Origin: Bacteroides sp.
Lineage (GTDB): Bacteria; Bacteroidota; Bacteroidia; Bacteroidales; Muribaculaceae
DNA: 36,504 nt
Direction of reading: 5' to 3'
Assembly (NCBI GenBank): GCA_014801735.1
Contig: JAAVDO010000001.1
Coordinates: 20,260-56,763 of the forward strand
Part shown: one piece after another, positions 17,202-36,504 of the stretch
Layout of the letters: each line of letters opens with the position of its first letter
How positions within the stretch are numbered: position 1 is the stretch's first letter
Position numbers and translations under genes: made by a program
Notes under the pieces: generated by a model
What the model was told of the DNA's origin: nothing
Databases searched by the model: none
The model's input: only the letters and a program-made list of their open reading frames with translations

Positions 17202-17229
17202 TTCACAGGTTTTTGAGGGTTTTACGCTT

Positions 17230-17246
17230 GGTTTATTTTATAAACC
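17230..17246. promoter_or_regulatory. Palindromic operator, gene-proximal copy
   Basis: GGTTTATTTTATAAACC has 7-bp arms GGTTTAT/ATAAACC around TTT; with the flanking T/A the arms reach 8 bp. It lies 29 bases upstream of the membrane-protein start codon, 80 bases centre-to-centre from a near-identical copy in the promoter. Confidence 0.75.
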
Positions 17247-17257
17247 ATTTAGCTTTG

Positions 17258-17287
17258 AAAAAAGAGCGGTCGCGCGATTCCGCTCTT
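17258..17287 (-). terminator. Terminator-like hairpin in the leader of the membrane protein/regulator operon
   Basis: On the minus strand AAGAGCGG and CCGCTCTT (17280-17287 and 17262-17269) form an 8-bp stem with a 10-base loop, followed by six T bases. It sits between the promoter and the first gene, in the transcribed leader, so it could attenuate the operon. Confidence 0.55.
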
Positions 17288-17297
17288 ATTCCGGCAG

Positions 17298-17329
17298 CAA
17301 AGGTAATAAGGTTTATAATATAAACCAAA
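17298..17329 (-). promoter_or_regulatory. Promoter of the membrane protein/regulator operon
   Basis: TTTG (17326-17329), 20 bases, TACCTTTG (17298-17305) on the minus strand: an exact Bacteroidetes consensus. The spacer is almost entirely taken up by a palindromic operator. Confidence 0.85.
17310..17326. promoter_or_regulatory. Palindromic operator inside the promoter spacer
   Basis: GGTTTATAATATAAACC has perfect 8-bp arms around one base and lies exactly between the -33 and -7 elements. Protein bound here would block RNA polymerase. The probable ligand is the winged-helix regulator of the same operon (inference). Confidence 0.8.
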
Positions 17330-17423
17330 TTTTCCGGCAAAAAAATCAAGAACATGATATGAAAAAACGGGCTACCACCAGACCGGTGATAGGCCGAAGA
17401 TTGTCGCAAAGCAGTGTGAAGAG

Positions 17424-19318: not shown

Positions 19319-19815
19319 GGCTGATCGTTGTTATTGTGGTATTTGGAACGTAAAGTGTCGAGCGCAGCATAATAACGCCGTTTAGCCGTTGACTTCGATA
19401 ACATCATGACTGCAGCAATGTCGTCGAATGTCATAGAGGCATAGATGCGGAGGCGCACAATCTCACGGGCATCCGGAGGTAACTCCCTCAGTAACGAATT
19501 AATGAGTTGGTATTCCTCCTGAAAATCGGCCGGCTCGCAATGTGCTATGGATGGCGCCATCTCATCAAGACCAATCATTTCCGGCATACGGCAACGTGAG
19601 GCGCACTCGTTTATAACTGAGCGCACAATATATGCCTCCAAATTCCTGATGCCCTCACTTTCGGACCTTTTCTCTAAAGTCTTCAGATAAACGTCCTGCA
19701 GAACATCTTCAGCCTCGGTGATTGAACCGGTGCGATAGCATGCATAGCGGAAAAGCCTCTGTTTGTGCTTCTCCATCAATCGCGTCAGCCGTTGGGTGAA
19801 ATTATTAGTTTCCAT
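19315..19815 (-). CDS. ECF RNA polymerase sigma factor
   Basis: 166 residues. Region 2 is seen in LFRYACYRTGSITEAEDVLQ and DVYLKTLEK, and region 4 in LPPDAREIVRLRIYASMTFD and IAAVMMLSKSTAKRRYYAAL, with its helix-turn-helix. It redirects RNA polymerase to a small regulon when released from its anti-sigma. It heads a three-gene operon with a putative membrane anti-sigma and a propeller lipoprotein, all translationally coupled by 4-base overlaps. Upstream DNA (19816-20063) shows no clear housekeeping promoter, consistent with autoregulation (inference). Confidence 0.92.
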   Translation of the reverse strand: METNNFTQRLTRLMEKHKQRLFRYACYRTGSITEAEDVLQDVYLKTLEKRSESEGIRNLEAYIVRSVINECASRCRMPEMIGLDEMAPSIAHCEPADFQEEYQLINSLLRELPPDAREIVRLRIYASMTFDDIAAVMMLSKSTAKRRYYAALDTLRSKYHNNNDQP

Positions 19816-22209: not shown

Positions 22210-23144
22210 CGAATCTCCCTCCCCCTTTTATTTCATTTATAGTCCCAGTTTATAATACTGGCAGGTACGTCCTGGAATGTCTGAATTCTATTGTTATGGA
22301 TGAACACTCTTTTGAAATTATCATCATTAACGATGGCTCAACGGACAATTCCTCATCGATTATTGCTGAGTTCTGTATGAGACATTCTCATTCTCGTTAT
22401 ATTTCTCAAACTAATCAAGGACTATCAACAGCTAGAAATAATGGCATGTCATTGGCCAGGGGCCAATACATTTTGTTTGTAGACAGTGATGATAAGCTTC
22501 TAAAAGATGGATTGAGGGAGATGGTAGATTTAGCTAAGATTTATCGACCAGACATTGTTGTCGGGCGCGTTATTTCTGTTTATCCAAATGGGGATGAAAA
22601 ACTTTGGCGTTTTCCTGATTTAGGTATTCATAATATGTCGGGAAATGGTTTACTTGGGAGAATGGTCACAGAGGGATATGTTCCTATGGTTTTTAATTAT
22701 CTTTATAATAGAAAGTTTCTTAAACATAGCAATATTGAGTTCTTGCCAAACATTATTCATGAGGACGAATTATGGACTCCTCAGGTATTGTCTGTTGCAA
22801 ACAATATAAAGATGATATCAAAAAGTCATTATGAATACAGAATTAATAGCGCATCAATTATGTCCACTTCTAAAGACGAAGTGAGATTCTTCTCCTTAAT
22901 TCAAATCATACATCATCTTGTATCTCTTTTAATAAAAGAAAAATCTAGTGATAAAAGGGAGGAGGTTATTCTCTTTATAAGGTGGCGTATTCATGTCTTA
23001 TTACAAATATTGTTGTCATTAGATTTTTCATGCACAATATTAATAGAACAACTTATTGGTAGACTTAGAATTTTAGATATAATTGGTTCTTCAGAATTTA
23101 TTAATTACTTTAATAATTCTCAGTTCAATAAATTACACTCATGA
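22206..23144 (+). CDS. Family 2 glycosyltransferase
   Basis: 312 residues with the GT-A fold of GT2: FIVPVYNTGRYVLECLNSIV, NDGSTDNSSSII (Asp of NDGS at 43), GLSTARNNGMSLARGQYILF and the metal-binding DSD at 93-95 (FVDSDDK), followed by an HEDELWTPQ motif as general base. It transfers a sugar from a nucleotide donor. Its place inside an export operon of a modified-peptide locus suggests glycosylation of the peptide or of an envelope receptor (inference). It overlaps neighbours by 4 bases on both sides. Confidence 0.9.
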   Translation: MTNLPPPFISFIVPVYNTGRYVLECLNSIVMDEHSFEIIIINDGSTDNSSSIIAEFCMRHSHSRYISQTNQGLSTARNNGMSLARGQYILFVDSDDKLLKDGLREMVDLAKIYRPDIVVGRVISVYPNGDEKLWRFPDLGIHNMSGNGLLGRMVTEGYVPMVFNYLYNRKFLKHSNIEFLPNIIHEDELWTPQVLSVANNIKMISKSHYEYRINSASIMSTSKDEVRFFSLIQIIHHLVSLLIKEKSSDKREEVILFIRWRIHVLLQILLSLDFSCTILIEQLIGRLRILDIIGSSEFINYFNNSQFNKLHS

Positions 23145-25345
23145 AGACTTTTCCGCATTTCAGACAACTTGATGCAATGGACTGTGGGCCAACATGTCTA
23201 CGTATGATCGCAAAGTATTATGGTAAGGACTTTTCTATAGAAACTTTGCGCAAACGCTCGTTTATTACTAGGGCAGGTGTATCTATGCTTGGGATCAGTG
23301 ATGCCGCGGAATCTATCGGATTCAAGACCATGGGGGTTCGGATATCCATGAATCAACTCATTAATGATATGCCCTTGCCATGCATTCTCCATTGGAATCA
23401 GCGTCATTTTGTTGTCTGTTATAAAATTAAAAAAACAAGGGATGGTCATAGATTTTTTATAGCTGATCCGGCATCAAAAAAATTGTCATACTCTGAATCT
23501 GAGATGAAGAAGTGCTGGATTTCTACACGGACAGATGGGAAAGATTGCGGCGCGGCTCTTGCATTGGAGCCAACGCCTGGTTTTTATTCCGGGAGAGATG
23601 AGAGTGGAGTTTCGCAACGGTCTCTATCATTTTTCTTAAAATACCTTCGTCCTTATAGGCTAGAAATCATCCAATTATTTGTTGGAATGATTGTCGCAAG
23701 TATTCTTCAATTGATATTCCCGTTCCTTACGCAAGGATTAGTAGATATTGGCATTAAGGGGCATAGTATAAATTTTATAGTGCTGATTTTAGCTGCTCAG
23801 TTATTCATATCAGTTTCACAAGTTGGTGTTGAGTTTATTCGGAGCTGGCTATTATTACATATAAATGCACGGGTTAATATTTCACTCATCTCAGATTTTC
23901 TAATAAAGCTGATGAAATTACCGTTAAGCTATTTTGATTCCAAGAATGTCGGAGATATCATGCAACGTATAGGAGATCATGGGCGTATCGAGTCTTTCTT
24001 GATGGGATCTTCGATCTCTACATTGTTTTCTTTTGTCAATTTCTTTATATTTGCTTTCGTGTTAGCAATCTACAATCCTGTAATTCTGCTAATTTTCCTT
24101 ATTGGGAATGGCTTATATATTGGCTGGGTGTCAGCTTTTATGAAATACCGAAGAGAACTAGATATTCGAAGGTTTGAGCAGTCTGCAGGTGAGCAGAGTA
24201 GTATCATCCAGATGATCACCGGAATGCAAGAAATTAAACTTAATAACTGCGAACGACAAAAAAGATGGCAATGGGAACGTATTCAGGTTAAGTTGTTCAA
24301 ATTAAGTGTGAAAGGACAGGCTTTAGGTCAGTTTCAACAAGTAGGTTCGGTCTTTTTTAATCAAATGACCAATATCATAATTTCTTTTATCGCTGCTAAA
24401 TGCGTGGTTGAAGGAACGATGACCTTGGGTATGATGGTTTCACTCACATATATAGTTGGGGCACTTAATGGCCCAGTTAATTCCTTTATTGGTTTCATTC
24501 GTCAGTTTCAAGATGCGAAGATCAGTCTTGAACGCCTTAACGAAATTCATAATAAGGATGACGAAGAACTGAATATCACTGATAAAAGTAATTCTTTGCC
24601 GGAGAATAAAGATATCTTCATAGAGAATCTCTCATTTAGTTATGATGGAGCGGAGCGTGATTATGTTCTGAATAATATTTACCTACGAATTCCGGCGGGA
24701 AAAGTAACGGCTATTGTTGGGCCGAGCGGAGGAGGTAAGACAACGCTTGTAAAACTTCTCCTGGGTTTCTATCAACCCGTCAAGGGATCCATCTTGATAG
24801 GTAATATATCACTCAATAGTATTAATCCCCATTTGTGGCGAAACAATACTGGCGCAGTAATGCAGGATGGATTCATTTTTTCTGATACGATTGCAAATAA
24901 TATAGCAATAGCTACCGATAATATCGACCATGAACGCCTGATAGAAGCTGTGGAAACTGCTAATATTCGTGATTTTATAGACTCGTTGCCATTGGGATAT
25001 AATACAAAGATCGGTATGGAGGGTAATGGTATTAGCCAAGGACAGAGACAACGGATTCTAATAGCACGTACCGTTTATAAGAACCCACACTACATTTTCT
25101 TTGACGAGGCTACTAACGCTCTTGATGCAAATAATGAACGTAAGATTATGGCTAATCTTCATCAGTTTTATAAAGGTAAGACAGTAGTTGTTGTCGCTCA
25201 TAGATTAAGTACTGTCCGCGACGCTGATAATATTATTGTCATTGACAATGGTAAGATTGCAGAACAAGGATCTCATCAAGAACTTGTTGAGCGCAAAGGC
25301 AAATATTATACACTTATTAAAAACCAGCTTGAACTTGGCAAATGA
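23141..25345 (+). CDS. C39-peptidase ABC exporter (PCAT type)
   Basis: 734 residues. The N-terminal C39 peptidase has Cys15 (DAMDCGPTCL), His89 (NQRHFVV) and Asp109 (IADP), which cleave double-glycine leaders. A six-helix membrane domain follows (about 165-470), then an ATPase domain with Walker A GPSGGGKTT (527-535), signature ISQGQRQR (about 631), Walker B FFDEATNALD (D655/E656) and an H-loop AHRLST. It should remove the leader after the LGKILGG of the two precursors in this window and export the core to the periplasm. Third gene of the export operon; an adaptor-like protein follows by 4-base overlap. Confidence 0.95.
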   Translation: MKTFPHFRQLDAMDCGPTCLRMIAKYYGKDFSIETLRKRSFITRAGVSMLGISDAAESIGFKTMGVRISMNQLINDMPLPCILHWNQRHFVVCYKIKKTRDGHRFFIADPASKKLSYSESEMKKCWISTRTDGKDCGAALALEPTPGFYSGRDESGVSQRSLSFFLKYLRPYRLEIIQLFVGMIVASILQLIFPFLTQGLVDIGIKGHSINFIVLILAAQLFISVSQVGVEFIRSWLLLHINARVNISLISDFLIKLMKLPLSYFDSKNVGDIMQRIGDHGRIESFLMGSSISTLFSFVNFFIFAFVLAIYNPVILLIFLIGNGLYIGWVSAFMKYRRELDIRRFEQSAGEQSSIIQMITGMQEIKLNNCERQKRWQWERIQVKLFKLSVKGQALGQFQQVGSVFFNQMTNIIISFIAAKCVVEGTMTLGMMVSLTYIVGALNGPVNSFIGFIRQFQDAKISLERLNEIHNKDDEELNITDKSNSLPENKDIFIENLSFSYDGAERDYVLNNIYLRIPAGKVTAIVGPSGGGKTTLVKLLLGFYQPVKGSILIGNISLNSINPHLWRNNTGAVMQDGFIFSDTIANNIAIATDNIDHERLIEAVETANIRDFIDSLPLGYNTKIGMEGNGISQGQRQRILIARTVYKNPHYIFFDEATNALDANNERKIMANLHQFYKGKTVVVVAHRLSTVRDADNIIVIDNGKIAEQGSHQELVERKGKYYTLIKNQLELGK

Positions 25346-25857
25346 TGGAGGAATTGAAAAATATGGCATCAAATAAAGATGTAGAGCTTCTAAGTGAAGA
25401 AGTTCAGGATGTCATGAACCGTATTCCCTCAGCGATTATTCGTTGGGGAATGACTGTGATGGCAGTAATTTTGGGTGGAATACTTATAGCATCTGCATAT
25501 ATTAGGTGGCCCCAAATTATAGAATGTTCTTTTGAAGGTCATCAAGTTGGGAATATTGTAGTTTTGAAAACTGCATTGTCTCCAAAAGCAATGAATTATC
25601 TGTTGCATGGGGACGAAAAAAGTATCCGTGTATATTCCCCTATGTTTCAACAAAAGTATTCAGAAGATGGAATAAATGCAAAAATAAAAAATATATCAAT
25701 TTTAAGTTATTCAAACGATCAATATAATACTACTCTGACAGTCGTTCTGGATCACAATAAGGTAACTGTTGATTCAATTTTCTATGGAAATATTCAGTTT
25801 ATTGTCTCGGAGAACACTTTGCTTCAATCAATAGTAGGGAGTGTAAAACGTTGGTAA
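25342..25857 (+). CDS. Minimal HlyD-like export adaptor
   Basis: 171 residues. The N-terminus matches the inner-membrane start of Bacteroidetes HlyD-type adaptors (SEEVQDVMNRIPSAIIRWGM, then a membrane helix to about residue 55), and the end (FIVSENTLLQSIVGSVKR) resembles the final beta domain of such adaptors. The lipoyl and long coiled-coil parts that normally span the periplasm are missing. Either it is a naturally short family that works with the C39 exporter, or an internally deleted adaptor. There is no frameshift and it is the last gene of the operon, followed by hairpins. Confidence 0.7.
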   Translation: MMEELKNMASNKDVELLSEEVQDVMNRIPSAIIRWGMTVMAVILGGILIASAYIRWPQIIECSFEGHQVGNIVVLKTALSPKAMNYLLHGDEKSIRVYSPMFQQKYSEDGINAKIKNISILSYSNDQYNTTLTVVLDHNKVTVDSIFYGNIQFIVSENTLLQSIVGSVKRW

Positions 25858-26131: not shown

Positions 26132-26776
26132 TCAAAATGAAGATGGGTCTTTGAGAAAGATATCCAACTCCATACAATTTAAGTACCTACTTTTACTGCA
26201 TGAAACCGTTGATAGATGTTTTTTCATCCCATCAACAATGGGTTGCTGGATAGCATAATCCACTGTTGATGAGGTTTTAGCTAAAGCCCACATCATCGTT
26301 GCAAATCCAGAAGTAGGGTCAGTATCTCTGAATTCTGTTAAGAATACAAACATATGAGGCAGACTTAAAAATAAATCTTTTTCATGAGTGATATGTTCAC
26401 ATATTTTACGAGTTGATTCGTATTTACCTTTCAAATTATATTCCTTAATCTTTGCTAACGCAGCTCCTGCTGGGTCGGCTTTATCCCCATCTTTCAGATG
26501 AATTAGAAAATTCTCCCAGGTTTTCTTCTCAATTAATATCAGTTGGCTTCCACTACTATCAACTGCAATAGCATCAACAGACTGAGGAGTTCCTATTCCT
26601 GTGCCCATATCTTGTTGATATGTTCGTGCTGCTCCGTCAAAATCTAGAATCTCAGACGTAGATTTATTAGAACAGCTATTATATTGCAAACAACATGCTT
26701 TGATATCACATATTGTTGAAACATTAACTCCTGCATAGGACGCGATTGCCATATATGTATCTTGTGCATTGATCAT
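26132..26776 (-). CDS. Putative PD-(D/E)xK nuclease partner of the ATPase
   Basis: 214 residues. The central SVDAIAVDSS ... LILIEKKTW gives Asp68-X14-Glu83-x-Lys85, the spacing of a PD-(D/E)xK nuclease core (beta strand, Asp, strand, ExK). The usual Pro before the Asp is absent, so the fold needs proof. It overlaps the ATPase gene by 4 bases and follows it, an arrangement found in phage-defence pairs where an ABC-type ATPase senses and a nuclease acts. Several Cys in the N-terminal part (CDIKACCLQYNSC) could bind metal. I cannot match it to a named system. Confidence 0.6.
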   Translation of the reverse strand: MINAQDTYMAIASYAGVNVSTICDIKACCLQYNSCSNKSTSEILDFDGAARTYQQDMGTGIGTPQSVDAIAVDSSGSQLILIEKKTWENFLIHLKDGDKADPAGAALAKIKEYNLKGKYESTRKICEHITHEKDLFLSLPHMFVFLTEFRDTDPTSGFATMMWALAKTSSTVDYAIQQPIVDGMKKHLSTVSCSKSRYLNCMELDIFLKDPSSF

Positions 26777-28089
26777 TCTGCAGATTTCGGATTAGGAATG
26801 TTCATGATATGACGTAAGGGCTCTGCTAATTTTGAAAAAACGAGATTTAGATTATCTGTAACTTCAAAAATCCTTGAAAGACCGTGCTTAATAGTATCGG
26901 CAAAATAATAGTTAACATCTTTCTCTGCATTATATTTTGCAGAATAAAATCTTATAGCTTGAATGAAATATGGGCTATGAGTACTAATGACAATAGGGAT
27001 GCCAGCTTGAACCAACTGAAGTATAACATTTGCAAAATGAACTTGCCACTCAGGATGTAAATGATTTTCAGGTTCGTCCCAAATCAATACTTTATTTGGA
27101 CCTATTATTTCGCTTTGAAGTAAAAGCTGGAGAACTCCAAAAGTTTTTGTTCCAGAGGCAGTATTAATAGGAGAGAAAGAGTTACCGTCACTAACAAAAT
27201 TTAGACGGTTGGTATCTTTATTGAATCGGAATGAGCCTTTCATTATATCTTCTACGTGAGTAATGAGCTCTTTATTTTCATTGAACATACCAACCGAGAT
27301 ATCTTTTGCATAGGCCATCTTATTTATAAAGTCCTTAATGTGAGTTGGAATCATACCAATACGAAAGAAAGCTCGCGGTCCTTCTACCTCGACATATTGC
27401 ATAGAATAACTCAAAGTATCAATCATATGCAGATAGAGAGGTGATTCAACATACGTTGCATCTTCAAGATATTCCTGTCCTTTGCATTTAACTTCTTTAA
27501 CTATATTATTCTCAATAGAAAAAGAGATGTTGGATTCCTCAGCATCTGAGATATCAAAAAAGACCTTAGATATATCTGTTCCTACAGAACATACTGAATT
27601 CATAAACTCAGATTCAATAAGGCTCTGTATTGAAGACGCTTGAACTGCAGCGGGATTGCTTCTCTTCTCAATTATTAACTCAAGATTTTTCAGGTCATTC
27701 TCAATATTCGCTTTGGTCCGCGGAGTAACATTTTCAATCTGACTAATAATTGAAACAACGTATTCACGTAATTGAGGAATTGTGATCTCACTCTCTATTA
27801 GCATCTTTTTTAGTTGATATTCACGAGGAATAGCATTATAAAGATTTTGAGAACGGAGAGCTCGTATACTCCTGATTCTTGTATACAATGCCCGAATATG
27901 TTTGTCAAGTAAATTATCGGATCTGCTAAAAGATTTATCTTGAGTCGATTTCAGTACCTGGACAACAGAGAAAAGCATTTTGCCCACTGTGCTTTTCCCA
28001 GATCCATTTTCACCAGCGATTACTGTAAGTCCATTTAGCTTGATTAGAGCTTCTTGAACCTTATTGATGTTGTTTATGGAGAGGATCAT
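26773..28089 (-). CDS. ABC/RecF-type AAA ATPase (AAA_15/AAA_21-like)
   Basis: 438 residues from the ATG at 28089 (MILSINNINKVQEALIKLNG). Upstream in-frame ATGs are rejected because a -7 element lies at 28118-28125. Walker A is GENGSGKST at 26-34; a long helical insertion follows; the signature-like NTASGTKTFGVLQLL and Walker B VLIWDEPENHLHPEW with the D-loop/H-loop STHSP complete the domain. Such ATPases (OLD, PtuA, AriA relatives) often sense phage or DNA ends and license a nuclease. It is paired with a putative nuclease by 4-base overlap and has its own promoter element, so the pair looks like an independent cassette inside the RiPP locus. Confidence 0.85.
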   Translation of the reverse strand: MILSINNINKVQEALIKLNGLTVIAGENGSGKSTVGKMLFSVVQVLKSTQDKSFSRSDNLLDKHIRALYTRIRSIRALRSQNLYNAIPREYQLKKMLIESEITIPQLREYVVSIISQIENVTPRTKANIENDLKNLELIIEKRSNPAAVQASSIQSLIESEFMNSVCSVGTDISKVFFDISDAEESNISFSIENNIVKEVKCKGQEYLEDATYVESPLYLHMIDTLSYSMQYVEVEGPRAFFRIGMIPTHIKDFINKMAYAKDISVGMFNENKELITHVEDIMKGSFRFNKDTNRLNFVSDGNSFSPINTASGTKTFGVLQLLLQSEIIGPNKVLIWDEPENHLHPEWQVHFANVILQLVQAGIPIVISTHSPYFIQAIRFYSAKYNAEKDVNYYFADTIKHGLSRIFEVTDNLNLVFSKLAEPLRHIMNIPNPKSAE

Positions 28090-28117
28090 ACGAAATTGAT
28101 TGTTCAAATTTTGGGTA

Positions 28118-28125
28118 CAAAGATA
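28118..28125 (-). promoter_or_regulatory. -7 element of the ATPase/nuclease pair
   Basis: TATCTTTG on the minus strand, 28 bases before ATG 28089. No exact TTTG at 19-21 bases upstream. Confidence 0.5.
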
Positions 28126-28189
28126 CGAATTATTCTTGAAAATCTGTAATGTCAAACCACCGATAGCAGTATAGCAGGAGAACCACATC

Positions 28190-28665
28190 AAATTTTCATA
28201 ACCTAAAGCGTCTTGCCAACGAATATGTACACATATCCATTGGCAGGATCAGACTGACCATCCTCACATGTCCGCTCAGTCAGTTGAATCCCATTTACAT
28301 GTCCGTCGGATGTTGAGCCATAACTATACGGTTGCTTTCATTGAAATTTACACAGTGTTGTTTGACTGAAAAGTTAACTGTCTAAAAGACCATGTAATGG
28401 TCAGCCTTTTTTCGGACGGATACATTCTATCGGGATACGGGTGAGCATCACACATAACATAATAGACAAAAGTGAAACTTGTTCGGACCGGTCATTTGGA
28501 TGGTCTGCTTTCCCTGTGTCAGGAAGGACGGGACTTGTGCAGGGGAATCAACTCGCTTTAATTGATACTTAAGCGTGGATACTTGAAGCTCAGCTTGCTT
28601 AAGTTGCAAGGATCACGTGTCTTCACACTCGTTGAATCCATATACTAAGGATAACATAAACCCTA
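28190..28665. other. Gene-free region between the ATPase cassette and the biosynthetic operon
   Basis: About 475 bases of mixed composition. Seen: a short plus-strand hairpin GACCAT/ATGGTC (28388-28402) followed by CAGCC and six T, and a 27-codon minus-strand frame from ATG 28640 (MDSTSVKTRDPCNLSKLSFK...) with no family or signal. It looks like decayed DNA from past rearrangement; nothing is called. Confidence 0.4.
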
Positions 28666-29823
28666 TCAAAATACAATTGATTCACATCGGGATATTTCAT
28701 TATAAAGAGCAATCATTTTATAAGAATAATCCTCAAAAGGTTTATTTCCTGGAGACAGCTCTCGTGATTCCTTAGCCGTAATAGCTCCTCCAATAAGTTT
28801 TTCGACATTCTTGAGAAGTGCCTCTGCTAGTATCTCAACCTTTCCTTCTTTCGAATGTGTACTATTTAGGCTTACAAACTCAGTCTTATCATATCCAGCT
28901 AATGATGAAGAGAGTCCCCAGTTACAATTTGCAATTATTGGTAGACCAGCATCTTTCATTTCGGTAGCCACCAACCCGTATTCTTCATATCTAGAAGGTA
29001 TAACTCCCAATAATGCATCTTTATACAAACTCTGAACATCATTATTATCCAAGTATCCTGTAAAGATTACCCTTTGAGATACACTGATGCTACTCCTCAA
29101 TAGAGAGGACAATAACGGTCCATCACCAACAATAACTAGTGATAGTTTCTCAAAATTAGATATTACTCTTTTAAAAGCGTCTAAAAGGATACTTATTCCT
29201 TTATTATCATCAAGTCTCCCTACAAAAAGAATAAAGGGTTTAGATATTGCTGCTTTATTAGTATTTCTCATTTTGTTTGACTGTGGTGGAAGTTGATGTT
29301 TTAAAAGGACTACTCTCTCATGAGGAATAGAGTAGTTATTCTCGATATAATACCTGCGATACGATGACATAACGATAATTTTATCGCAAATAGAAACTAG
29401 ATTCGATTCCGCAAGTCTTAATTCCTTAGATTCTATGTTATATATATCGCAATCGGAATAATGTAAGGTTAGGAGTGAAGCTGATCTAATAAACAAGATA
29501 CGGAGGTATTTTGCCAATTGATAACATCCCATAAAGTTATAATGAAATATGATATCCTCATTTGTATCAATGTATCGAACCAAAAGATAGGCTACATTTC
29601 TGTAATATGTACTTTTCCCTTTCTTAACAGCCGGAATATTAATATATCTAACATTATTAGACTGATAAATTATTACATCGGGACGGTTTTGCAAAAGATT
29701 TACAATCGTTATGCTATATGACGTATATTTCTGAATTATATCTAAAATAGTTTGAATGTATCTACCTACTCCAAATTTTGCGGCCAAACTATCCTCTGTA
29801 AAAATATAAACATGTTTGCTCAT
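28666..29823 (-). CDS. GT4-type glycosyltransferase of the RiPP locus
   Basis: 385 residues with the GT-B fold: N-terminal acceptor domain starting HVYIFTEDSLAAKFGVGRYI, C-terminal donor domain with FILFVGRLDDNKGISILLDA, LVIVGDGPLLSSLL, VIFTGYLDNNDVQSLYKDA and the sugar-nucleotide motif PSRYEEYGLVATEMKDAGLP. It resembles the glycosyltransferase subgroup (TIGR04157-like) that goes with GG-leader radical SAM loci in Bacteroidetes. It is the last gene of the biosynthetic operon, overlapping the LanC-like gene by 4 bases. It probably glycosylates the peptide or a carrier (inference). Confidence 0.88.
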   Translation of the reverse strand: MSKHVYIFTEDSLAAKFGVGRYIQTILDIIQKYTSYSITIVNLLQNRPDVIIYQSNNVRYINIPAVKKGKSTYYRNVAYLLVRYIDTNEDIIFHYNFMGCYQLAKYLRILFIRSASLLTLHYSDCDIYNIESKELRLAESNLVSICDKIIVMSSYRRYYIENNYSIPHERVVLLKHQLPPQSNKMRNTNKAAISKPFILFVGRLDDNKGISILLDAFKRVISNFEKLSLVIVGDGPLLSSLLRSSISVSQRVIFTGYLDNNDVQSLYKDALLGVIPSRYEEYGLVATEMKDAGLPIIANCNWGLSSSLAGYDKTEFVSLNSTHSKEGKVEILAEALLKNVEKLIGGAITAKESRELSPGNKPFEDYSYKMIALYNEISRCESIVF

Positions 29824-30521
29824 AAATAATTCATTAATTTAAGTCCTAAGCCGGCTATCCCTGATTTAATCCCTATTGGATATCTCATAATTTGATTCTT
29901 TAAAATAGTATCAGCGGGAAAATATAAGCTTGACGGAACTAATTCTTGATTCTTCCCAAATACTAAACTCTCTCCAAGCAAAGGTCTCCATAACGAGAAA
30001 TCAGTTATATCAATATTTCTATCGTAGCTCCCACCGAATTCGTAAAGGAATTGTTTCCATCTATTCAAGTATCTAATATCAAAAAAGATATTTGTTGAGG
30101 AGCTAATCCGGCACCAAACATAGAAAGAAACTCCCCGTAAACCACTATCAAAACTAAAGTCTTGCATTCGATGTATATCAGAATCCATAATCTTAGTATC
30201 TAGTTCAACGAGAATATCGTCTGGGTTAATATTCAAAATGCCTCTGTTATGAAGGTGCCAAATAATCCAGCCAATCCCTGACACTCCAGTGTCGAAGCTA
30301 TTCTCTGTTTTTAATGAAATGCTATCAAGGCATTCCTGGAGAATTTCACAAGCCAAATCTTGATATACGGAGGTAGATGTATATTGAGAATAGGCATATA
30401 AAGCTAAGGCAATTCCCGATTTCCCATAATATAGTCCTATGTCATCTATTGATTCGCAATATAGGATTAGATGCTCTATTACATCCTCTAAAGAAAGTTT
30501 TCCAGTCAAATTATGACTCAT
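29820..30521 (-). CDS. Short LanC-like protein lacking zinc ligands
   Basis: 233 residues, about half the length of a full LanC cyclase (about 400). It keeps the repeated Gly-rich turns of the LanC alpha/alpha barrel: LYYGKSGIALALYAYS, DTGVSGIGWIIWHLH, DSGLRGVSFYVWCR and IKSGIAGLGLKLM. The catalytic Cys...Cys-His zinc site of real cyclases (WCxG and CHG) is absent, so lanthionine cyclisation is unlikely. It may act as a binding scaffold for the precursor. The frame overlaps the pseudo-radical SAM gene by 11 bases and the GT4 gene by 4. Confidence 0.75.
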   Translation of the reverse strand: MSHNLTGKLSLEDVIEHLILYCESIDDIGLYYGKSGIALALYAYSQYTSTSVYQDLACEILQECLDSISLKTENSFDTGVSGIGWIIWHLHNRGILNINPDDILVELDTKIMDSDIHRMQDFSFDSGLRGVSFYVWCRISSSTNIFFDIRYLNRWKQFLYEFGGSYDRNIDITDFSLWRPLLGESLVFGKNQELVPSSLYFPADTILKNQIMRYPIGIKSGIAGLGLKLMNYL

Positions 30522-31728
30522 ACTTATAGCACATATTGGGAATACAAGTAATCAGTTCGTAATTGGAAATTGATGGACAAATAGTTTTATTAACGCATTG
30601 TCTACATGCCATAACTTTATCTCTTGTCAGGAACCAACAAGAGGAATGATCCATCTGCGTATACACCAATTCGGTCATAGAATTAGTCATGATATTACCA
30701 ATTAAAGAATAATTCAGGTTGGAATATGTGTCTCCATTAGGTAATATATATAATTTCCCAAAGAAATGCTCATTAATATTCTGACGTCGATGTATATCCA
30801 GCTTCGTACTTTTCTGCCTCAAAATATCATCCAGTGAATTAAACACATATTCTTTGAAGAAGTCTAAATTCGAACCTGTATATAGTGGGACAAGTTCTAT
30901 GTGACCGGATAACGTCTCTAATAATGATTCTGCAATTTCAAAATCATCAATAGATGAAATCATCTTTCGAAAGGTGATTCTTTCTCCATTATTTGACTGA
31001 ATTGCATTTTTATAATCCATAGATGTGTGTTTGTCGGTGATATTAATGATAAAACTTGTATCAGAAATATCATATCCGTCAAACAATACTAATTCATCTA
31101 TATCAGATAAATAAAATGTCTTCTTGAAGGAATACTTATTCAACAAATTTAGAACATCTGGAAGAAAAGTACATGTTGCTGAATTAAGGAAATTAACTTT
31201 AGGAATTCTAAATATGGAAAGGTGCATTAAGAGTCTCAAATAAGTTTCCGCCGTCATATACGAATATGTGTCAAATGAATGATTTGACAAGAATTGCTTA
31301 TATGAAGAATACTCGCAACCGTATTTATTGTCTTTGGGCGACAAATAGATTTCTACCTCGTTCAAATTTCTTATTACTTTTCTTCCATTATAGACCCCAT
31401 TTTCTTTGCGCAACCGGTCTATGGAATCATATATCTTACAAGCTGGAGCTATAATAAACGGTTTCGTTTCAGCAAAACAAATTCCGCCTGAATTCGAGTC
31501 TATAATTCTGTCTATAAAGGCTAATAGTGAGGGGTCTGAAGAATAATTTGAATCAAGTTCAATGCAATAACCATTCTCAGGCTTTTCAAGATACTCAAAG
31601 GCCTGTTTGATTATGTAAGACGGTTTTATAATGGCGTTATATAACCCATTTAAGGAATTATAAACCACGACTTCTGCATCATCTCTAAATATGAAAGTAT
31701 GTGGTTCCAGATATAAAAATTTTTCCAT
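30511..31728 (-). CDS. Pseudo-radical SAM protein (GG-Bacteroidales system)
   Basis: 405 residues with the layout of the radical SAM partner protein (TIGR04150-like) but no CX3CX2C cluster site; where it would be, only one Cys remains (NKYGCEYSSYKQF). The C-terminal part has SPASM-like cysteines (SSCWFLTRDKVMACRQCVNK, TICPS, CIPNMC). Such proteins are thought to bind or position the precursor for the active radical SAM enzyme; direct function is unproven. It starts 3 bases after the radical SAM stop codon. Confidence 0.85.
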   Translation of the reverse strand: MEKFLYLEPHTFIFRDDAEVVVYNSLNGLYNAIIKPSYIIKQAFEYLEKPENGYCIELDSNYSSDPSLLAFIDRIIDSNSGGICFAETKPFIIAPACKIYDSIDRLRKENGVYNGRKVIRNLNEVEIYLSPKDNKYGCEYSSYKQFLSNHSFDTYSYMTAETYLRLLMHLSIFRIPKVNFLNSATCTFLPDVLNLLNKYSFKKTFYLSDIDELVLFDGYDISDTSFIINITDKHTSMDYKNAIQSNNGERITFRKMISSIDDFEIAESLLETLSGHIELVPLYTGSNLDFFKEYVFNSLDDILRQKSTKLDIHRRQNINEHFFGKLYILPNGDTYSNLNYSLIGNIMTNSMTELVYTQMDHSSCWFLTRDKVMACRQCVNKTICPSISNYELITCIPNMCYKYES

Positions 31729-31731
31729 ATT

Positions 31732-33141
31732 TTAATCCTTATAAATATCAATGAATGCGCTAATAAAACTCTTGGGGTTGTTCTCTAGAAGTGAAAGATA
31801 TTGAGAATGGTAGGATGACCGATACCGATCTTTGTTTAGATATCTATCGCAACTCTTTTTACCATTTATTCTCGGTATGTAATGCATGCAGAGACTACAA
31901 TTCTTCCATTGAAAGCAAGACGGGCATCTTTCTACGACTTGATTATAGCTTTCCTCATATAGTGAGGACACCTCTTCGAAGTCAATCTCAACTTTCCCAT
32001 CTTTTACTGATCCCAATGAGATTTCCTGTCCGATTTTTTCACATGGTAATATTTTCCCGTTTACAGTAAGAAATATCTTTCGATCAAACGGTACACATGT
32101 ACCGGTAGGTATATATGAAATGTCATTTGAGAAGAAAAGATCGCGATATGATTGATATGTATTTGAGACTGACGCGTCTAAAAAAGAGCTCATGTTTCGA
32201 TCATCCGGCTTTAGTTTTCCTCCTCTCTCTAGAACTTCACAATTTTTTGCCTCATCATAACTTTGATAAAAATTCTTAAACATTGCATAAAACTCATCTT
32301 TTTTAGCCGGAGCGACACCATTAGTATTTAAATCACTAATTCTAGGAACTTTTCCAAACGTATCCCAAATATATGTAGCGATAGACTCTACAGAGTTTCT
32401 GTTATGAAGGACTGCATTAAATTCAACACTAGAATCGAAATAGTCGGGATAGCGATTTTTTAACGCTAAAACATTCCTTTCAACAGTCGAAAAAGAAGGT
32501 CTACCATCTGAAGTTACTCTATAACTGTCATTATACTCATTTCCATCTAGACTAATGAGCATTTGAAAATCTTTTTCTACAATATAGTCCATGTAACGGT
32601 CTAATAACATAGCATTTGTTGTCATTGTATAAATAAAAGACACATTAGTTATGTTTAACGACTCAATGTATGAGATTACATTGTGAATCAAATTAAAGTT
32701 TAACAGAGGCTCACCACCATAGAATCCGATAGCAATTGTATTTTCGTGAGATGCATTGAGAGGAGAATCCCAAAGTTGTTTCAAATATTCAAATATGGCT
32801 TTGAAATCATCAAAAGACATCTTCTGGTTTTGACGAGCATCATAATTAGAATACAGTTCTCCGTATCCGCAATATTTACATCTAAGATTGCAACCATCGG
32901 TTACTTCTATGACTAAATGACGCAAATTTGCAAGATTCTCTTTAAGTAATTCAGGTGAATAATGCGTAATAAAGCTGGGATCCTGGTCTTTAATTAAACC
33001 GAGTTCCTCATAATATCTTATCTTTATATCTGAGAGATCTTTATCGTTTGGGAGATAGACAAACTCTCGTAATTCACCAAGATACAGATATGTATTACCG
33101 TTATGTGATCTTACTAAAAATGTGGCTGTTTTATTGTCCAT
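31732..33141 (-). CDS. Radical SAM/SPASM peptide maturase
   Basis: 469 residues. An N-terminal region of about 75 residues probably recognises the leader. The radical SAM domain has the 4Fe-4S motif CNLRCKYC (Cys84, 88, 91), then GFYGGEPLLNF and LISLDGNEYNDSYR. The C-terminal SPASM domain has many Cys (GTCVPFDRK, LPCEKIGQ, CPSCFQWKNCSLCMHY, KSCDRY) for extra clusters. It matches the GG-Bacteroidales maturase type (TIGR04148-like). The product could be thioether (sactipeptide or ranthipeptide) links from the CCxCxC core, or another radical modification; the chemistry is not shown by sequence. First gene of the 4-gene biosynthetic operon. Confidence 0.92.
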   Translation of the reverse strand: MDNKTATFLVRSHNGNTYLYLGELREFVYLPNDKDLSDIKIRYYEELGLIKDQDPSFITHYSPELLKENLANLRHLVIEVTDGCNLRCKYCGYGELYSNYDARQNQKMSFDDFKAIFEYLKQLWDSPLNASHENTIAIGFYGGEPLLNFNLIHNVISYIESLNITNVSFIYTMTTNAMLLDRYMDYIVEKDFQMLISLDGNEYNDSYRVTSDGRPSFSTVERNVLALKNRYPDYFDSSVEFNAVLHNRNSVESIATYIWDTFGKVPRISDLNTNGVAPAKKDEFYAMFKNFYQSYDEAKNCEVLERGGKLKPDDRNMSSFLDASVSNTYQSYRDLFFSNDISYIPTGTCVPFDRKIFLTVNGKILPCEKIGQEISLGSVKDGKVEIDFEEVSSLYEESYNQVVERCPSCFQWKNCSLCMHYIPRINGKKSCDRYLNKDRYRSSYHSQYLSLLENNPKSFISAFIDIYKD

Positions 33142-33145
33142 GACA

Positions 33146-33153
33146 CAAATATA
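33146..33153 (-). promoter_or_regulatory. Possible -7 element 4 bases from the radical SAM start
   Basis: TATATTTG on the minus strand ends 4 bases before the ATG at 33141. If used, it would give a leaderless mRNA. No -33 TTTG; it may be chance. Confidence 0.3.
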
Positions 33154-33387
33154 AGCATTAAAATTTTATTCACACGCGCATTATAATAATTTAACACGAA
33201 TTTACTCTCTCCGGCTTGCCTACTGATATGATTTGAGTTGTTAACTTCAGTTTTTCACGGTATTGTGGTGGTGCTGTACCAACAGGGCTGCCTGTCGTCC
33301 CTGAACATTGGGGCGTCTCATTTGTGAGAGCACTCTCATGTAAATTTTCAAGGAAAATACATCACCCCTCATGGCTTGGCTATAGAA

Positions 33388-33445
33388 AATCTTAAATATG
33401 AGGATGAGCAGAACTGAGGTCTGAGGCATCCACATATTTAAGATT
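33388..33445 (-). terminator. Long hairpin downstream of precursor A
   Basis: Arms 33388-33406 and 33427-33445 pair at 18 of 19 positions, with a 20-base loop. Read on the minus strand, the stem is followed by TTTTC. A second small hairpin TGAGAG-CA-CTCTCA lies at 33325-33338. It could terminate partly, giving more precursor than enzyme mRNA. Confidence 0.65.
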
Positions 33446-33467
33446 AAGGACCGGGTAATGCTATTAT

Positions 33468-33692
33468 TTAGCGGGTCTTGGGTGCGCCCAGCTCTCCGGA
33501 ACCGTAGCCGGCACCGTTTTCATCATTGTTATCGTAATTTCTTTGGCCCATGCCTTTTACATTGTCCCATGACGTGTCTGGATCGCAACTGCAAATGCAG
33601 CAATTCTCACCGCCGAGAATCTTACCAAGCTCCCGGCTCTGGAGTTCCTTGCCGGCGAAGGAACTCAGTTTAATTTTGTTTAGACTTTTCAT
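33468..33692 (-). CDS. GG-leader RiPP precursor peptide A
   Basis: 74 residues from the ATG at 33692 (a GTG three codons upstream is less likely because family leaders begin MKxLNK). The leader MKSLNKIKLSSFAGKELQSR then ELGKILGG ends in Gly27-Gly28, the C39 cleavage site, and matches the GG-Bacteroidales natural-product leader (TIGR04149-like). The core begins ENCCICSC (four Cys) and ends in a Gly/Asn-rich tail (DENGAGYGSGELGAPKTR). It lies 27 bases downstream of the propeller gene on the same strand and about 330 bases upstream of the radical SAM gene. The substrate role is inferred from leader and neighbours. Confidence 0.92.
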   Translation of the reverse strand: MKSLNKIKLSSFAGKELQSRELGKILGGENCCICSCDPDTSWDNVKGMGQRNYDNNDENGAGYGSGELGAPKTR

Positions 33693-33719
33693 ATCTGTCA
33701 CTTCTATTTTAGTTGATAG

Positions 33720-34967
33720 TTATCTCTCTTTATAATTTCCATGCAGGATATAGCTGTTGTCATCCTCTGAAATGCTTTCCCTGAGATGTGTCAGGATTTC
33801 AATATCTGATGCCGATACGTCATCCATTGCGAGACGTGCGTCGATTCGCTCCAGAAGGTCGCCTGGGTCCATGAGCATATTGAATCTTTCCATAGACCTC
33901 ATCAGATAGGGCTTTACATCCAGTTCCATGCCTCCGAGCAGGTCATTGTAGATCTTACAATATCCTCCTCTCAAGGTCTTCGTATCAACAATAACCATCC
34001 GGGTAGGATCATCCTCCCATGGGTTAGGCCTGCCGTCCGAGTAAACCATCGGACCAATCAAATAGTAATCTCCAGCCTTGTAATAAACGTGTCTGGGTGT
34101 CTCCCCGTCGAATGTGGCGGTGAAACGCGGCGCTACCCTCATGTTCCGCATGTCGAAATAGAATATGGAATCAGGAATAGGTTCATAACGGGCAAACGAA
34201 AGTTCCATACCGCCCTGACGGCGGTTGTGAAGGAGTGGTTTATTGGAGAAACCTGCAATCATCTTTTTGATAGGATCATATGTGTGCCATATTGCATTAC
34301 CCTCAAAGTCCTGAATCCAGACGGGAGGACCGCTCACAAAGCTTTTGTTGGAGAAGCAGATCTGCACAACAAGTATTTTCCCATTATCATAATCCGCCAG
34401 TATGTGGCCACCGGATCTGGTAAATGCCAACGGAATACTACGGATATAATTCCCCAGCAGGTCATATTCCAAAATATATGAATTATTTGCAGGAAAAAAA
34501 ATAATCCGATTATGTGCTTCCTCTATCTGTACACCGTCTGGATCCGCATGGTATTCCCCAGGACCTTGGCCTATAGCGCCCAATTGCTTGACATATTTGC
34601 CGTCACGCCGGAATAGCTTCGATGCTTCACCAAATTGCGAGACAACGATATAATTGTCTGAAAAATCGCATATACCGTAACCTCCCACCAGTGCATCGTC
34701 AGTTGAGTCTAGTCTGACGATTTCGAGTGAATCGATCAGCATGCTGAGTGGAATCATCATGGTCCTGTCGCGATCGGCTTTCCCTATATGGCAGTTTATC
34801 ACCGTGTCGCCGTGGATTATCTCCCGTGTAGCTATAACTTCACACTGAGACAGAGGATTCTCCTCCGAATTGTCGCCGGACTCGGAATGGCATGAGGACA
34901 ACAGACAAAGACCGACAGCAGTCAGAGTCAGGAATTTATTTATGTTTTGAGGCAAAAGATTAATCAT
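33720..34967 (-). CDS. 6-bladed beta-propeller lipoprotein A
   Basis: 415 residues from ATG 34967 (a TTG two codons earlier is not needed). Lipoprotein signal with lipobox LLSSC, Cys26. The propeller body shows ICDFSDNYIVVSQFGEASKL, GAIGQGPGEYHADPDGVQIE, EYDLLGNYIRSIPLAF and FYFDMRNMRVAPRFTATFDG, with a helical C-terminal tail. Same family as the propeller in the ECF sigma operon of this window. It directly precedes the precursor, probably in one transcript, suggesting a surface protein tied to this peptide: immunity, capture or signalling (inference). Confidence 0.85.
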   Translation of the reverse strand: MINLLPQNINKFLTLTAVGLCLLSSCHSESGDNSEENPLSQCEVIATREIIHGDTVINCHIGKADRDRTMMIPLSMLIDSLEIVRLDSTDDALVGGYGICDFSDNYIVVSQFGEASKLFRRDGKYVKQLGAIGQGPGEYHADPDGVQIEEAHNRIIFFPANNSYILEYDLLGNYIRSIPLAFTRSGGHILADYDNGKILVVQICFSNKSFVSGPPVWIQDFEGNAIWHTYDPIKKMIAGFSNKPLLHNRRQGGMELSFARYEPIPDSIFYFDMRNMRVAPRFTATFDGETPRHVYYKAGDYYLIGPMVYSDGRPNPWEDDPTRMVIVDTKTLRGGYCKIYNDLLGGMELDVKPYLMRSMERFNMLMDPGDLLERIDARLAMDDVSASDIEILTHLRESISEDDNSYILHGNYKER

Positions 34968-35212
34968 ATGCAAATATATGACACAAATACTTCATTTGCA
35001 CCTATTTTATGATTATTTAACGGAGATTCCCCATCCCTCCAGTATATCTGATATGATTTGAGTTGTTAACTTCAGTTTTTCACGGTATTGTGGTGGTGCT
35101 GTAATTACAGGGCTGCCTGTCGTCCCTGAATATTGGGACGTCTCATTTGTGAGAGCACTCTCATGTAAATTTTCAAGGAAGATACATCGCCCCTCATGGC
35201 TTGGCTATAGAA

Positions 35213-35270
35213 AATCTTAAATATGAGGATGAGCAGAACTGAGGTCTGAGGCATCCTCATACTTAAGATT
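35213..35270 (-). terminator. Long hairpin downstream of precursor B
   Basis: Counterpart of the hairpin at 33388-33445: the 19-base left arm is identical and the right arm differs at two positions, so the single mismatch sits at a different place. The structure is kept though the sequence drifts. Confidence 0.65.
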
Positions 35271-35292
35271 AAGAACCGGGTAATGCTATTAT

Positions 35293-35517
35293 TTAGCGGG
35301 TTTTGGGTGCCCCCAGTTCTCCGGAGCCGTAGCCGGCTCCGTTTTCATCATTGTTATTATAGCTATCTTGACCTGTACCCCTTACATTGTCCCATAGTTT
35401 ATCTGGTGAGCAACTGCAAATGCAGCAATTCTCGCCGCCGAGAATCTTACCAAGCTCCCGGCTCTGGAGTTCCTTGCCGGCGAAGGAACTCAGTTTGATT
35501 TTGTTTAGACTTTTCAT
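35293..35517 (-). CDS. GG-leader RiPP precursor peptide B
   Basis: 74 residues, same start choice as copy A. Leader and first core residues (1-36, including the CCICSC cysteines) and tail (55-74) are identical to A. Eight differences lie at 37, 40, 41, 46, 48, 51, 52 and 54, for example Asp37 to Ser and Arg51 to Asp. It would be processed by the same maturase and exporter, giving a second product variant. It follows the propeller B gene by 27 bases. Confidence 0.92.
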   Translation of the reverse strand: MKSLNKIKLSSFAGKELQSRELGKILGGENCCICSCSPDKLWDNVRGTGQDSYNNNDENGAGYGSGELGAPKTR

Positions 35518-35544
35518 ATCTGTCACTTCTATTTTGGTTGGTAG

Positions 35545-36504
35545 TTATCTCTCTTTATAATTTCCATGCAGGATATAGCTGTTGTCATCCTCTGAAATGC
35601 TTTCCCTGAGATGCGTCAGAATTTCAATATCCGATGCCGGTACGTCGTCCATTGCGAGACGTGCGTCGATTCTCTCCAGAAGGTCGCCCGGGTCCATGAG
35701 CATATTGAAGCTTTCCATCGACGCTATCGGAGCGGGTTTTATATCCAGTTCCATCCCTCCGAGCAGGTCATTGTAGATCTTACAGTATCCTCCTCTCAAT
35801 GTCTTTGTGTCAACAATAACCATTCTGGCCGGGTCATTCTCCCAGGGGTTAGGCTTGCCGTCCGTGTAATGCATCGGACCGATCAGATAGTAATCTCCGG
35901 CCTTGTAATAAAGGTGTCTGGGTGTCTCCCCGTCGAATGTGGCGGTGAAACGCGGCGTTACCCTCATGTTCCGCATGTCGAAATAGAATATGGAATCAGG
36001 GATAGGTTCATAGCGGGTAAACGAAAGTTCCATACCGTCCTGACTGCGGTTATGAAGGTGCGGTATATTGGAGAAAGCCGCAATCATTTCTTTGATAGGT
36101 TCATATGTGTGCCATATGGCATTCCCCTCAAAGTCCTGAATCCATACGGGAGGACCGCTCACAAAGCTTTTGTTGGAGAAGCATCTTTGCACAACAAGTA
36201 TTCTTCCATTATCAAGATCCGCCAGAATATGGCCGCCGGTTCTTGTAAATGCCAACGGAATACTACGTACATAGTTTCCCAGCAAATCATATTCCATAAT
36301 ACTCGAATTATTATGAGGAAAGAACCACACCCTTTCATGAATCTCATCTATCTGGACTCCGTCCGGATAAGAAATGTATTCTCCGGGGCCTTGGCCTATG
36401 GCGCCCAATTGCTTGACATATTTGCCGTCACGCCGGAATAGCTTCGATGCTTCACCAAATTGCGAGACAACGATATAATTGTCTGAAAAATCGCATATAC
36501 CGTA
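35545..36504 (-). CDS. 6-bladed beta-propeller lipoprotein B (partial)
   Basis: The last 319 residues of a propeller closely similar to copy A, with no length difference; the N-terminus, including the lipoprotein signal, is past the right edge. The frame stays open to 36504, so an apparent internal start near 36408 is not the true start. Long blocks are identical (SGPPVWIQDFEGNAIWHTY; FYFDMRNMRV; the last 40 residues almost so), while blade segments such as YHADPDGVQIEEAHNRIIFF against YISYPDGVQIDEIHERVWFF differ. Paired with precursor B. Confidence 0.85.
   Translation of the reverse strand, partial: YGICDFSDNYIVVSQFGEASKLFRRDGKYVKQLGAIGQGPGEYISYPDGVQIDEIHERVWFFPHNNSSIMEYDLLGNYVRSIPLAFTRTGGHILADLDNGRILVVQRCFSNKSFVSGPPVWIQDFEGNAIWHTYEPIKEMIAAFSNIPHLHNRSQDGMELSFTRYEPIPDSIFYFDMRNMRVTPRFTATFDGETPRHLYYKAGDYYLIGPMHYTDGKPNPWENDPARMVIVDTKTLRGGYCKIYNDLLGGMELDIKPAPIASMESFNMLMDPGDLLERIDARLAMDDVPASDIEILTHLRESISEDDNSYILHGNYKER

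What the first reader, a model, noticed from the sequence alone, without database searches (positions are those of the whole stretch)
33224..36504. Tandem propeller + RiPP precursor modules with a diversified core
Two 1825-bp modules (lipoprotein propeller, GG-leader precursor, structured 3' segment) sit head to tail without indels. The precursors share identical leader, Cys block and tail; all eight differences are in residues 37-54. Leader and Cys conservation fits one maturase and exporter making two variants. The clustering suggests diversifying selection on the peptide centre, as in toxin/immunity or signal/receptor families.
Basis: partly seen in the sequence, partly recalled or inferred. 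Interest (0 to 1): 0.88.

Follow-up and report, generated by a model that had tools for sequence, protein, structure and literature searches.

The report
Paired peptide-and-propeller gene modules
A gut bacterium carries side-by-side copies of a unit that pairs a small modified peptide with an exported propeller-shaped protein; the peptides share both ends and differ in the middle, and related bacteria build similar paired units with other partner proteins.

Summary
Both precursors are TIGR04149 peptides beside a TIGR04148 maturase, a TIGR04150 pseudo-rSAM, a LanC-like protein and a glycosyltransferase, so the chemistry class is known. All eight residue differences lie in residues 37-54; leader, Cys block and tail are identical. 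Diversifying selection is not supported: silent sites change in the same places and replacement rates stay below silent rates. The repeat is a mosaic of conserved and divergent tracts.

The wider finding is architectural. In related clusters 73 of 98 precursors sit beside an exported-type partner gene (DUF5128 propeller, GLPGLI protein or aspartyl-protease/PDZ protein), often in arrays, and partner type changed at least seven times on the maturase tree. A precursor-selected check agreed weakly (7 of 23 against 2 of 34; propellers alone not significant). Propeller-partner loci mostly carry the glycosyltransferase. Against strict cognate pairing, core and partner divergence are uncorrelated within arrays. 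Best reading: one maturase and C39 exporter serve two peptides, each with a dedicated envelope partner that probably binds it. Binding is inferred.

The parts
35545..36504 (-). DUF5128 six-bladed propeller lipoprotein, copy B (cut by window end; 319 C-terminal residues seen)
   Evidence: PF17170 6.2e-12; 282 of 320 codons (stop included) give the same residue as copy A
35293..35517 (-). RiPP precursor B, 74 aa from ATG (GTG alternative at 35526)
   Evidence: TIGR04149 33.9 bits, cut-off 25; P0001
35048..35292 (-). 3' structured segment, copy B
   Evidence: fold z -3.9; 96% identical to copy A
34971..34978 (-). TATATTTG, Bacteroides -7-like box just before the propeller A start (motif recalled)
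   Evidence: TANNTTTG scan, 37 matches in window against 22 expected; suggestive only
33720..34973 (-). DUF5128 six-bladed propeller lipoprotein, copy A (TTG start listed; ATG at 34967 more likely)
33468..33692 (-). RiPP precursor A, 74 aa from ATG (GTG alternative at 33701)
   Evidence: TIGR04149 35.3 bits, cut-off 25
33531..33584 (-). variable core block of precursor A (residues 37-54 from ATG)
   Evidence: all 8 residue differences and 21 nt differences against copy B
33223..33467 (-). 3' structured segment, copy A, with a long near-palindromic hairpin
   Evidence: fold z -4.6; self-complementary match at 33388-33445, 81%
33146..33153 (-). TATATTTG -7-like box before the maturase start (motif recalled)
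   Evidence: suggestive only
31732..33141 (-). radical SAM/SPASM peptide maturase TIGR04148
   Evidence: 500 bits, cut-off 300; Cys84, 88, 91 and seven later Cys invariant in 12 aligned rows
30511..31728 (-). pseudo-rSAM TIGR04150
   Evidence: 274.7 bits, cut-off 250
29820..30521 (-). LanC-like protein, 233 aa
   Evidence: PF05147 35.1 bits, only profile 2-137 of 350
28666..29823 (-). GT4-type glycosyltransferase, related to TIGR04157 but under its cut-off
   Evidence: TIGR04157 208.9 of 400 bits; PF00534
23141..25345 (+). C39-peptidase ABC exporter (PCAT), likely leader cleavage and export
   Evidence: PF03412 1.5e-32, PF00664, PF00005

Best explanation
This is a GG-Bacteroidales (TIGR04149/TIGR04148/TIGR04150) RiPP cluster in a Barnesiella-like bacterium that holds at least two tandem units of one exported-type propeller lipoprotein plus one precursor. 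Shown: the anatomy, the families, the tandem repeat, the mosaic pattern of differences, and the recurrence of precursor-partner neighbours in related clusters. Inferred: both precursors are modified by the one maturase set (leader and Cys block identical), cut after GG and exported by the C39 ABC transporter, giving two peptides that share an N-terminal Cys block and a Gly-rich tail but differ in an 18-residue centre. Inferred: the propeller is an envelope partner that binds or handles the exported, possibly glycosylated, peptide as carrier, receptor or protector. The units evolve by duplication followed by patchy exchange or uneven constraint (leader and 3' segment kept alike, core centre and part of the propeller divergent), not by detectable positive selection.
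For: Family scores over cut-off for precursors, maturase and pseudo-rSAM; C39 exporter. Repeat in ungapped register with clustered differences: third positions P = 0.0008, same-residue codons P = 0.023, longest identical run 104 nt (ending at the window edge) P = 0.0016; pn < ps in every stretch with replacement changes. A precursor was found in 66 of 79 loci plus the window; 73 of 98 precursors (loci L036, L044 and L045 dropped as near-duplicates) have a partner gene next to them. Propeller alone: 27 of 85 downstream neighbours against 37 of 619 other genes, P = 8e-11. 15 of 73 loci that hold a precursor or propeller have two or more precursors linked to different partners. Partner type needs 7 changes on the maturase tree, least possible 2. 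Crude test for a hydrophobic N-terminus: 28 of 28 propeller, 28 of 30 GLPGLI and 8 of 10 protease partners. Propeller-partner loci carry the glycosyltransferase in 19 of 21 cases, GLPGLI-partner loci in 2 of 20.
Against: Binding of peptide by propeller is not shown by any search. Core and partner identity do not correlate within arrays (28 pairs, rho 0.03, P 0.87). L072 units 1 and 3 share a near-identical core while their partners are far apart, and in L056 two identical precursors lie next to propellers only 41% identical. 25 of 98 precursors have no such neighbour; L073 has five precursors without one before its contig ends. The GLPGLI and protease families were chosen because they filled the slot, so their enrichment in the first set is circular. 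In the precursor-selected check the slot was filled in 7 of 23 cases against 2 of 34 (P 0.023), and for propellers alone in 1 of 23 against 0 of 34 (P 0.40). The propeller-glycosyltransferase link rests on only 3 independent tree pairs, not significant. Leader ps is below core ps in only 31 of all 46 pairs (12 of 14 with leader identity of 0.9 or more), and leader silent-site conservation could be RNA-level constraint and not exchange.
Confidence: 0.55

Rival explanations
1. Bacteriocin with immunity: the two peptides kill relatives and each propeller lipoprotein protects the producer from its own peptide.
For: One partner per precursor in arrays and replacement of the partner by unrelated folds, as immunity proteins often are (recalled); such clusters were listed as sactipeptide-like bacteriocin clusters in PMC4573289 (section 8).
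Against: No correlation of core and partner identity within arrays; near-identical cores with diverged partners in L072. No immunity family hit in the two propellers. PMC10352776 reports no homologues of described immunity proteins in its clusters (section 13).
Confidence: 0.2
2. Secreted signal with envelope receptor: the propeller senses the returning peptide.
For: Related propeller folds bind peptides and RNA (LRP6-peptide and Brat-RNA entries among the fold matches); another DUF5128 propeller in this window lies beside an ECF sigma-factor gene; [quoted passage not shown]
Against: No signalling domain was hit in the two propellers and no regulator among the cluster genes scanned from 28666 to 36504; the sigma-factor propeller is a separate locus.
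Confidence: 0.2
3. Scavenger or metal carrier recaptured by a surface propeller, as BtuG or XusB lipoproteins do for B12 and siderophores.
For: Surface lipoproteins that catch small ligands are known in Bacteroides (PMC6143338, PMC13142918: seen in search listings only); XusB is a weak fold match; Cys-rich core; three of 63 listed propeller homologues carry a TonB C-terminal domain.
Against: Only 2 of 66 loci have an ORF similar to the window's three outer-membrane barrel proteins within 6 kb of a precursor (three queries only, so others may be missed).
Confidence: 0.1
4. Ordinary tandem duplication: the units diverged neutrally with purifying selection on leader and tail, and the propeller is a bystander.
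For: pn < ps in the window and in 44 of 46 core pairs, one pair equal and one reversed; leader-conserved, core-variable is usual for RiPPs (general knowledge).
Against: Silent differences are unevenly spread (P 0.0008 and 0.023), which simple neutral drift does not give; propellers are enriched next to precursors in the first set.
Confidence: 0.15

Closest known systems
TIGR04149 / TIGR04148 / TIGR04150 GG-Bacteroidales rSAM RiPP clusters (PMC4573289, section 8 and passages read; B. fragilis 3_1_12 and B. uniformis ATCC 8492)
   Same: Same precursor family and pseudo-rSAM, TIGR04148 maturase in B. uniformis; B. fragilis 3_1_12 has a lipoprotein gene directly after the precursor
   Different: The word 'lipoprotein' occurs once in the paper's main text and no repeated precursor-partner unit is described in the section read; here there are two propeller-precursor units with mosaic divergence
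BGC5 of PMC10352776 (section 13 and passages read)
   Different: No transporter in BGC5; the main text does not contain the word propeller; gene order differs
Graspetide branch 5 loci of Bacteroides (PMC8939145, passages and section 7 read)
   Same: Several diverse precursors per locus predicted to be modified by one enzyme; lipoproteins of unknown function in graspetide loci
   Different: ATP-grasp chemistry and uncharacterised lipoprotein clusters not named as propellers
DUF5128 / DUF4934 six-bladed propellers, structure 4raa (BF0058)
   Different: 4raa is titled only 'putative exported protein'; a shared fold shows no function

Membership tests
TIGR04149 rSAM-modified RiPP precursor | Profile score over the curated cut-off | tested here: met
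   35.3 and 33.9 bits, cut-off 25
TIGR04149 rSAM-modified RiPP precursor | GG leader end followed by a Cys-rich core | tested here: met
   KILGG-ENCCICSC in both copies and in P0002-P0004
TIGR04149 rSAM-modified RiPP precursor | Peptide is actually modified | not testable with these tools
   Needs mass spectrometry
TIGR04148 peptide maturase | Profile score over cut-off, CX3CX2C and later (SPASM-region) cysteines | tested here: met
   500 bits, cut-off 300; Cys84/88/91 and Cys349, 367, 406, 409, 415, 418, 431 invariant in 12 rows
TIGR04150 pseudo-rSAM | Profile score over cut-off | tested here: met
   274.7 bits, cut-off 250
TIGR04157 glycosyltransferase | Profile score over cut-off | tested here: not met
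   208.9 bits, cut-off 400; it is a GT4-type enzyme (PF00534)
Lanthipeptide cyclase LanC | Full-length LANC_like domain | tested here: not met
   PF05147 matched only over profile 2-137 of 350; zinc ligands were not tested by a call
DUF5128 propeller | PF17170 over gathering score and propeller fold | tested here: met
   57.2 and 45.8 bits, cut-off 22.9; copy A model mean pLDDT 85, best fold matches are propellers
Diversity-generating retroelement target | Differences at template adenines, template repeat and reverse transcriptase | tested here: inconclusive
   Of 21 variable-block differences 6 have A only in copy A, 6 only in copy B, 9 in neither; 16 are transitions. No template or reverse transcriptase was specifically searched for
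Toxin/immunity module | Peptide kills and partner protects | not testable with these tools
   No assay; correlation of core and partner identity absent

The most novel reading that the evidence does not exclude
GG-Bacteroidales rSAM clusters are built from interchangeable precursor-plus-partner units: each exported peptide travels with its own envelope protein that physically handles it. The partner slot has been refilled several times by unrelated folds (DUF5128 propeller, GLPGLI protein, aspartyl protease with PDZ), in step with the modification set (propeller with glycosyltransferase), while patchy exchange keeps leaders alike and reshuffles core centres within an array.
Probability: 0.3. 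Interest if true: 0.75.

Novelty: new variant of a known kind. Interest (0 to 1): 0.52.

Why it matters
Gut Bacteroidales carry many rSAM RiPP clusters whose products have no assigned role in the papers read here. If each peptide has a dedicated exported partner, the partner is the handle to find the function: it can be purified, used as bait and deleted. Arrays that share one maturase and differ only in the core centre and partner are natural experiments on which part of the peptide the partner reads.

Tried and rejected
Own-genome search: none held for this window. Closest relatives in species genomes by precursor: none by tblastn in genome contigs or viral contigs; the maturase alignment gave 130 relatives, the best 80 kept as 79 loci. 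Only 9 of 393 sampled genomes of the order have a maturase match at E <= 1e-100, best 49% identity, so the window's own genus was apparently not reached. Rfam on 30000-36504: no match up to E = 1. 3' segment as a dispersed repeat: no copy in the 79 loci at blastn E <= 0.01. 62-aa ORF inside the 3' segment: 51 aa in copy B, not conserved. DGR mutagenesis: not supported by the base changes, not strictly excluded. Positive selection by pairwise pn/ps: not supported, but silent sites in many other pairs are near saturation, so the test is weak there. Variable propeller residues enriched in loops: no (0.447 against 0.448, P 1.0); densest 40-residue stretch 138-177 only P 0.034. Core-partner co-divergence: absent. 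TonB re-uptake: 2 of 66 loci, with three queries only. Unlabelled genes after precursors in the second set: three were scanned and gave a thioredoxin-like (L106), an alcohol-dehydrogenase-like (L109) and another aspartyl-protease (L091) hit, so the slot may hold more families, or those genes are bystanders. No paper linking GLPGLI or DUF5128 proteins to rSAM RiPPs was seen among the rows listed; the lists are capped, and the library lacks most subscription journals.
Full report
What is there. On the minus strand at the window's end lie, in transcription order, propeller B (cut by the window end), precursor B, a 245-nt segment, propeller A, precursor A, a 245-nt segment, then a radical SAM maturase, a pseudo-rSAM, a LanC-like protein and a glycosyltransferase. 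Both precursors pass the TIGR04149 cut-off, the maturase TIGR04148 and the pseudo-rSAM TIGR04150. The glycosyltransferase is related to TIGR04157 but below its cut-off, and the LanC-like protein matches less than half of the LanC profile. A C39-peptidase ABC exporter lies at 23141-25345 on the plus strand. The only named relative of the precursors is a Barnesiella MAG peptide (P0003).

The repeat. The two units are spaced by 1,825 nt. Over the 1,457 nt present in both there are 146 differences in ungapped register. The second unit is not fully visible. The precursors differ at 8 of 74 residues, all between residues 37 and 54 (P = 7e-5 for such a span). Three other relatives (P0002-P0004) keep the leader (P0004 from LNKIKL on), the Cys block and most of the tail, and vary mainly in the same centre.

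Selection or mosaic. In the variable block silent changes are as striking as amino-acid changes: ps 0.86 and pn 0.28, against ps 0.11 and pn 0 in the leader; whole core ps 0.49, pn 0.11. Third-position differences are unevenly spread along precursor and propeller (P 0.0008; same-residue codons only, P 0.023), with an identical run of 104 nt. The propellers also have a divergent stretch (residues 138-177, 12 of 38 differences, P 0.034), but their differences are not loop-biased. So the evidence speaks for patches of different age or constraint, and not for an excess of replacement changes. DGR-type mutagenesis is not supported by the base changes: 9 of 21 have no A in either copy and 16 are transitions.

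Same pattern elsewhere. Of 46 within-locus precursor pairs in 20 loci (window included), 43 have lower core than leader identity (medians 0.40 and 0.795; one pair per locus: 19 of 20). In 44 of 46 cores ps exceeds pn; one pair is identical and one (L026) is reversed. Leader ps is below core ps in 31 of 46 pairs, and in 12 of the 14 with leader identity of 0.9 or more. In L004, L017, L043 and L056 leader silent divergence is well below that of the partner gene; in L020 and L052 it is not much lower. In L072 units 1 and 3 share a near-identical core while their partners are far apart. Leaders are thus often either exchanged between units or constrained at RNA level. Many cores are aligned at low identity, so those ps values are rough.

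Partner slot. The maturase alignment gave 79 loci; a precursor was found in 66 of them plus the window, with my own rough gene calls. After dropping three near-duplicate loci (L036, L044, L045), 73 of 98 precursors (65 downstream, 8 upstream) have as direct neighbour a DUF5128 propeller, a GLPGLI/Porph_ging protein or an aspartyl-protease/PDZ protein; 25 have none. The downstream neighbour is such a gene in 65 of 85 cases against 45 of 619 other genes. For propellers alone the numbers are 27 of 85 against 37 of 619, P = 8e-11. The GLPGLI and protease families were defined from these same neighbours, so their part of the count is circular; loci are also related by descent. By this rule the window's precursor B is linked to propeller A as its downstream neighbour. 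In a second set of 30 loci found by the precursor profile in 393 sampled genomes (36 with a match), two were dropped as lying in genomes already used and two had no precursor called. There 7 of 26 precursors had a partner; as downstream neighbours 7 of 23 against 2 of 34, P 0.023, and for propellers alone 1 of 23 against 0 of 34, P 0.40. Those loci are at most about 3.2 kb long.

Arrays and switching. In 15 of the 73 loci that hold a precursor or propeller, two or more precursors are linked to different partner genes, and 14 of these 15 use one partner family. On a quick maturase tree of 71 rows the partner type of 47 rows needs 7 changes, least possible 2, shuffled mean 20.3. Propeller-partner loci (window included) carry the glycosyltransferase in 19 of 21 cases, GLPGLI loci in 2 of 20 (P 1.7e-7), but only 3 independent tree pairs bear on this, not significant, and the glycosyltransferase was sought with the window's own sequence.

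3' segment. It is 96% identical between units, more alike than the silent sites of the genes, and folds strongly in both copies. It has no Rfam match and no copy in the other loci. The simple terminator scan gave no hit on the coding strand within it, so a terminator or mRNA-stabilising role is an inference. TATATTTG boxes sit 3-4 nt before the likely starts of propeller A and the maturase, so units and maturase may be separate transcripts; this is suggestive only.

Literature. PMC4573289 (section 8 and passages) describes TIGR04149 clusters, one with a lipoprotein after the precursor. PMC10352776 (section 13 and passages) describes BGC5 with two precursors each followed by a putative signalling protein. 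PMC8939145 (passages and section 7) describes one-enzyme, many-precursor graspetide loci and associated lipoproteins. None of the text seen there treats a propeller, GLPGLI protein or protease as a repeated precursor partner, and no such paper was among the rows listed, several of which are capped lists.

Verdict. A real, mostly known kind of RiPP cluster with an under-described architecture. The positive-selection claim is not supported. The paired-unit architecture and partner replacement are the part worth following.

Noticed in passing
window 16282-19815: Minus-strand genes: ECF sigma factor, a 251-aa protein with one membrane-like segment, another DUF5128 propeller, a membrane-like protein and a small 93-aa protein; a propeller beside a sigma factor with no precursor.
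   Followed up: partly
P0163, P0168, P0170: DUF5128 propellers carrying a TonB C-terminal domain.
   Followed up: no
L072:4885-9959: Four precursor-GLPGLI units in a row before the maturase; units 1 and 3 share a near-identical core but have diverged partners.
   Followed up: partly
L073:3498-4910: Five TIGR04149-like precursors in tandem after the pseudo-rSAM, with no partner gene seen before the contig ends.
   Followed up: no
L043:5266-8698: Two precursors with cores 79% identical but aspartyl-protease/PDZ-type partners only 46% identical; the B. fragilis loci L044 and L045 show one such unit at the same place.
   Followed up: partly
window 26132-28191: AAA_15/AAA_21 ATPase with a small overlapping downstream gene, between exporter and maturase operon; looks like an OLD-type ATPase pair (name recalled).
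   Followed up: no
window 25342-25857: 171-aa gene after the exporter without a Pfam or NCBIfam hit, similar by phmmer to longer proteins next to exporters in other loci, one of which (L003) is HlyD-type.
   Followed up: partly
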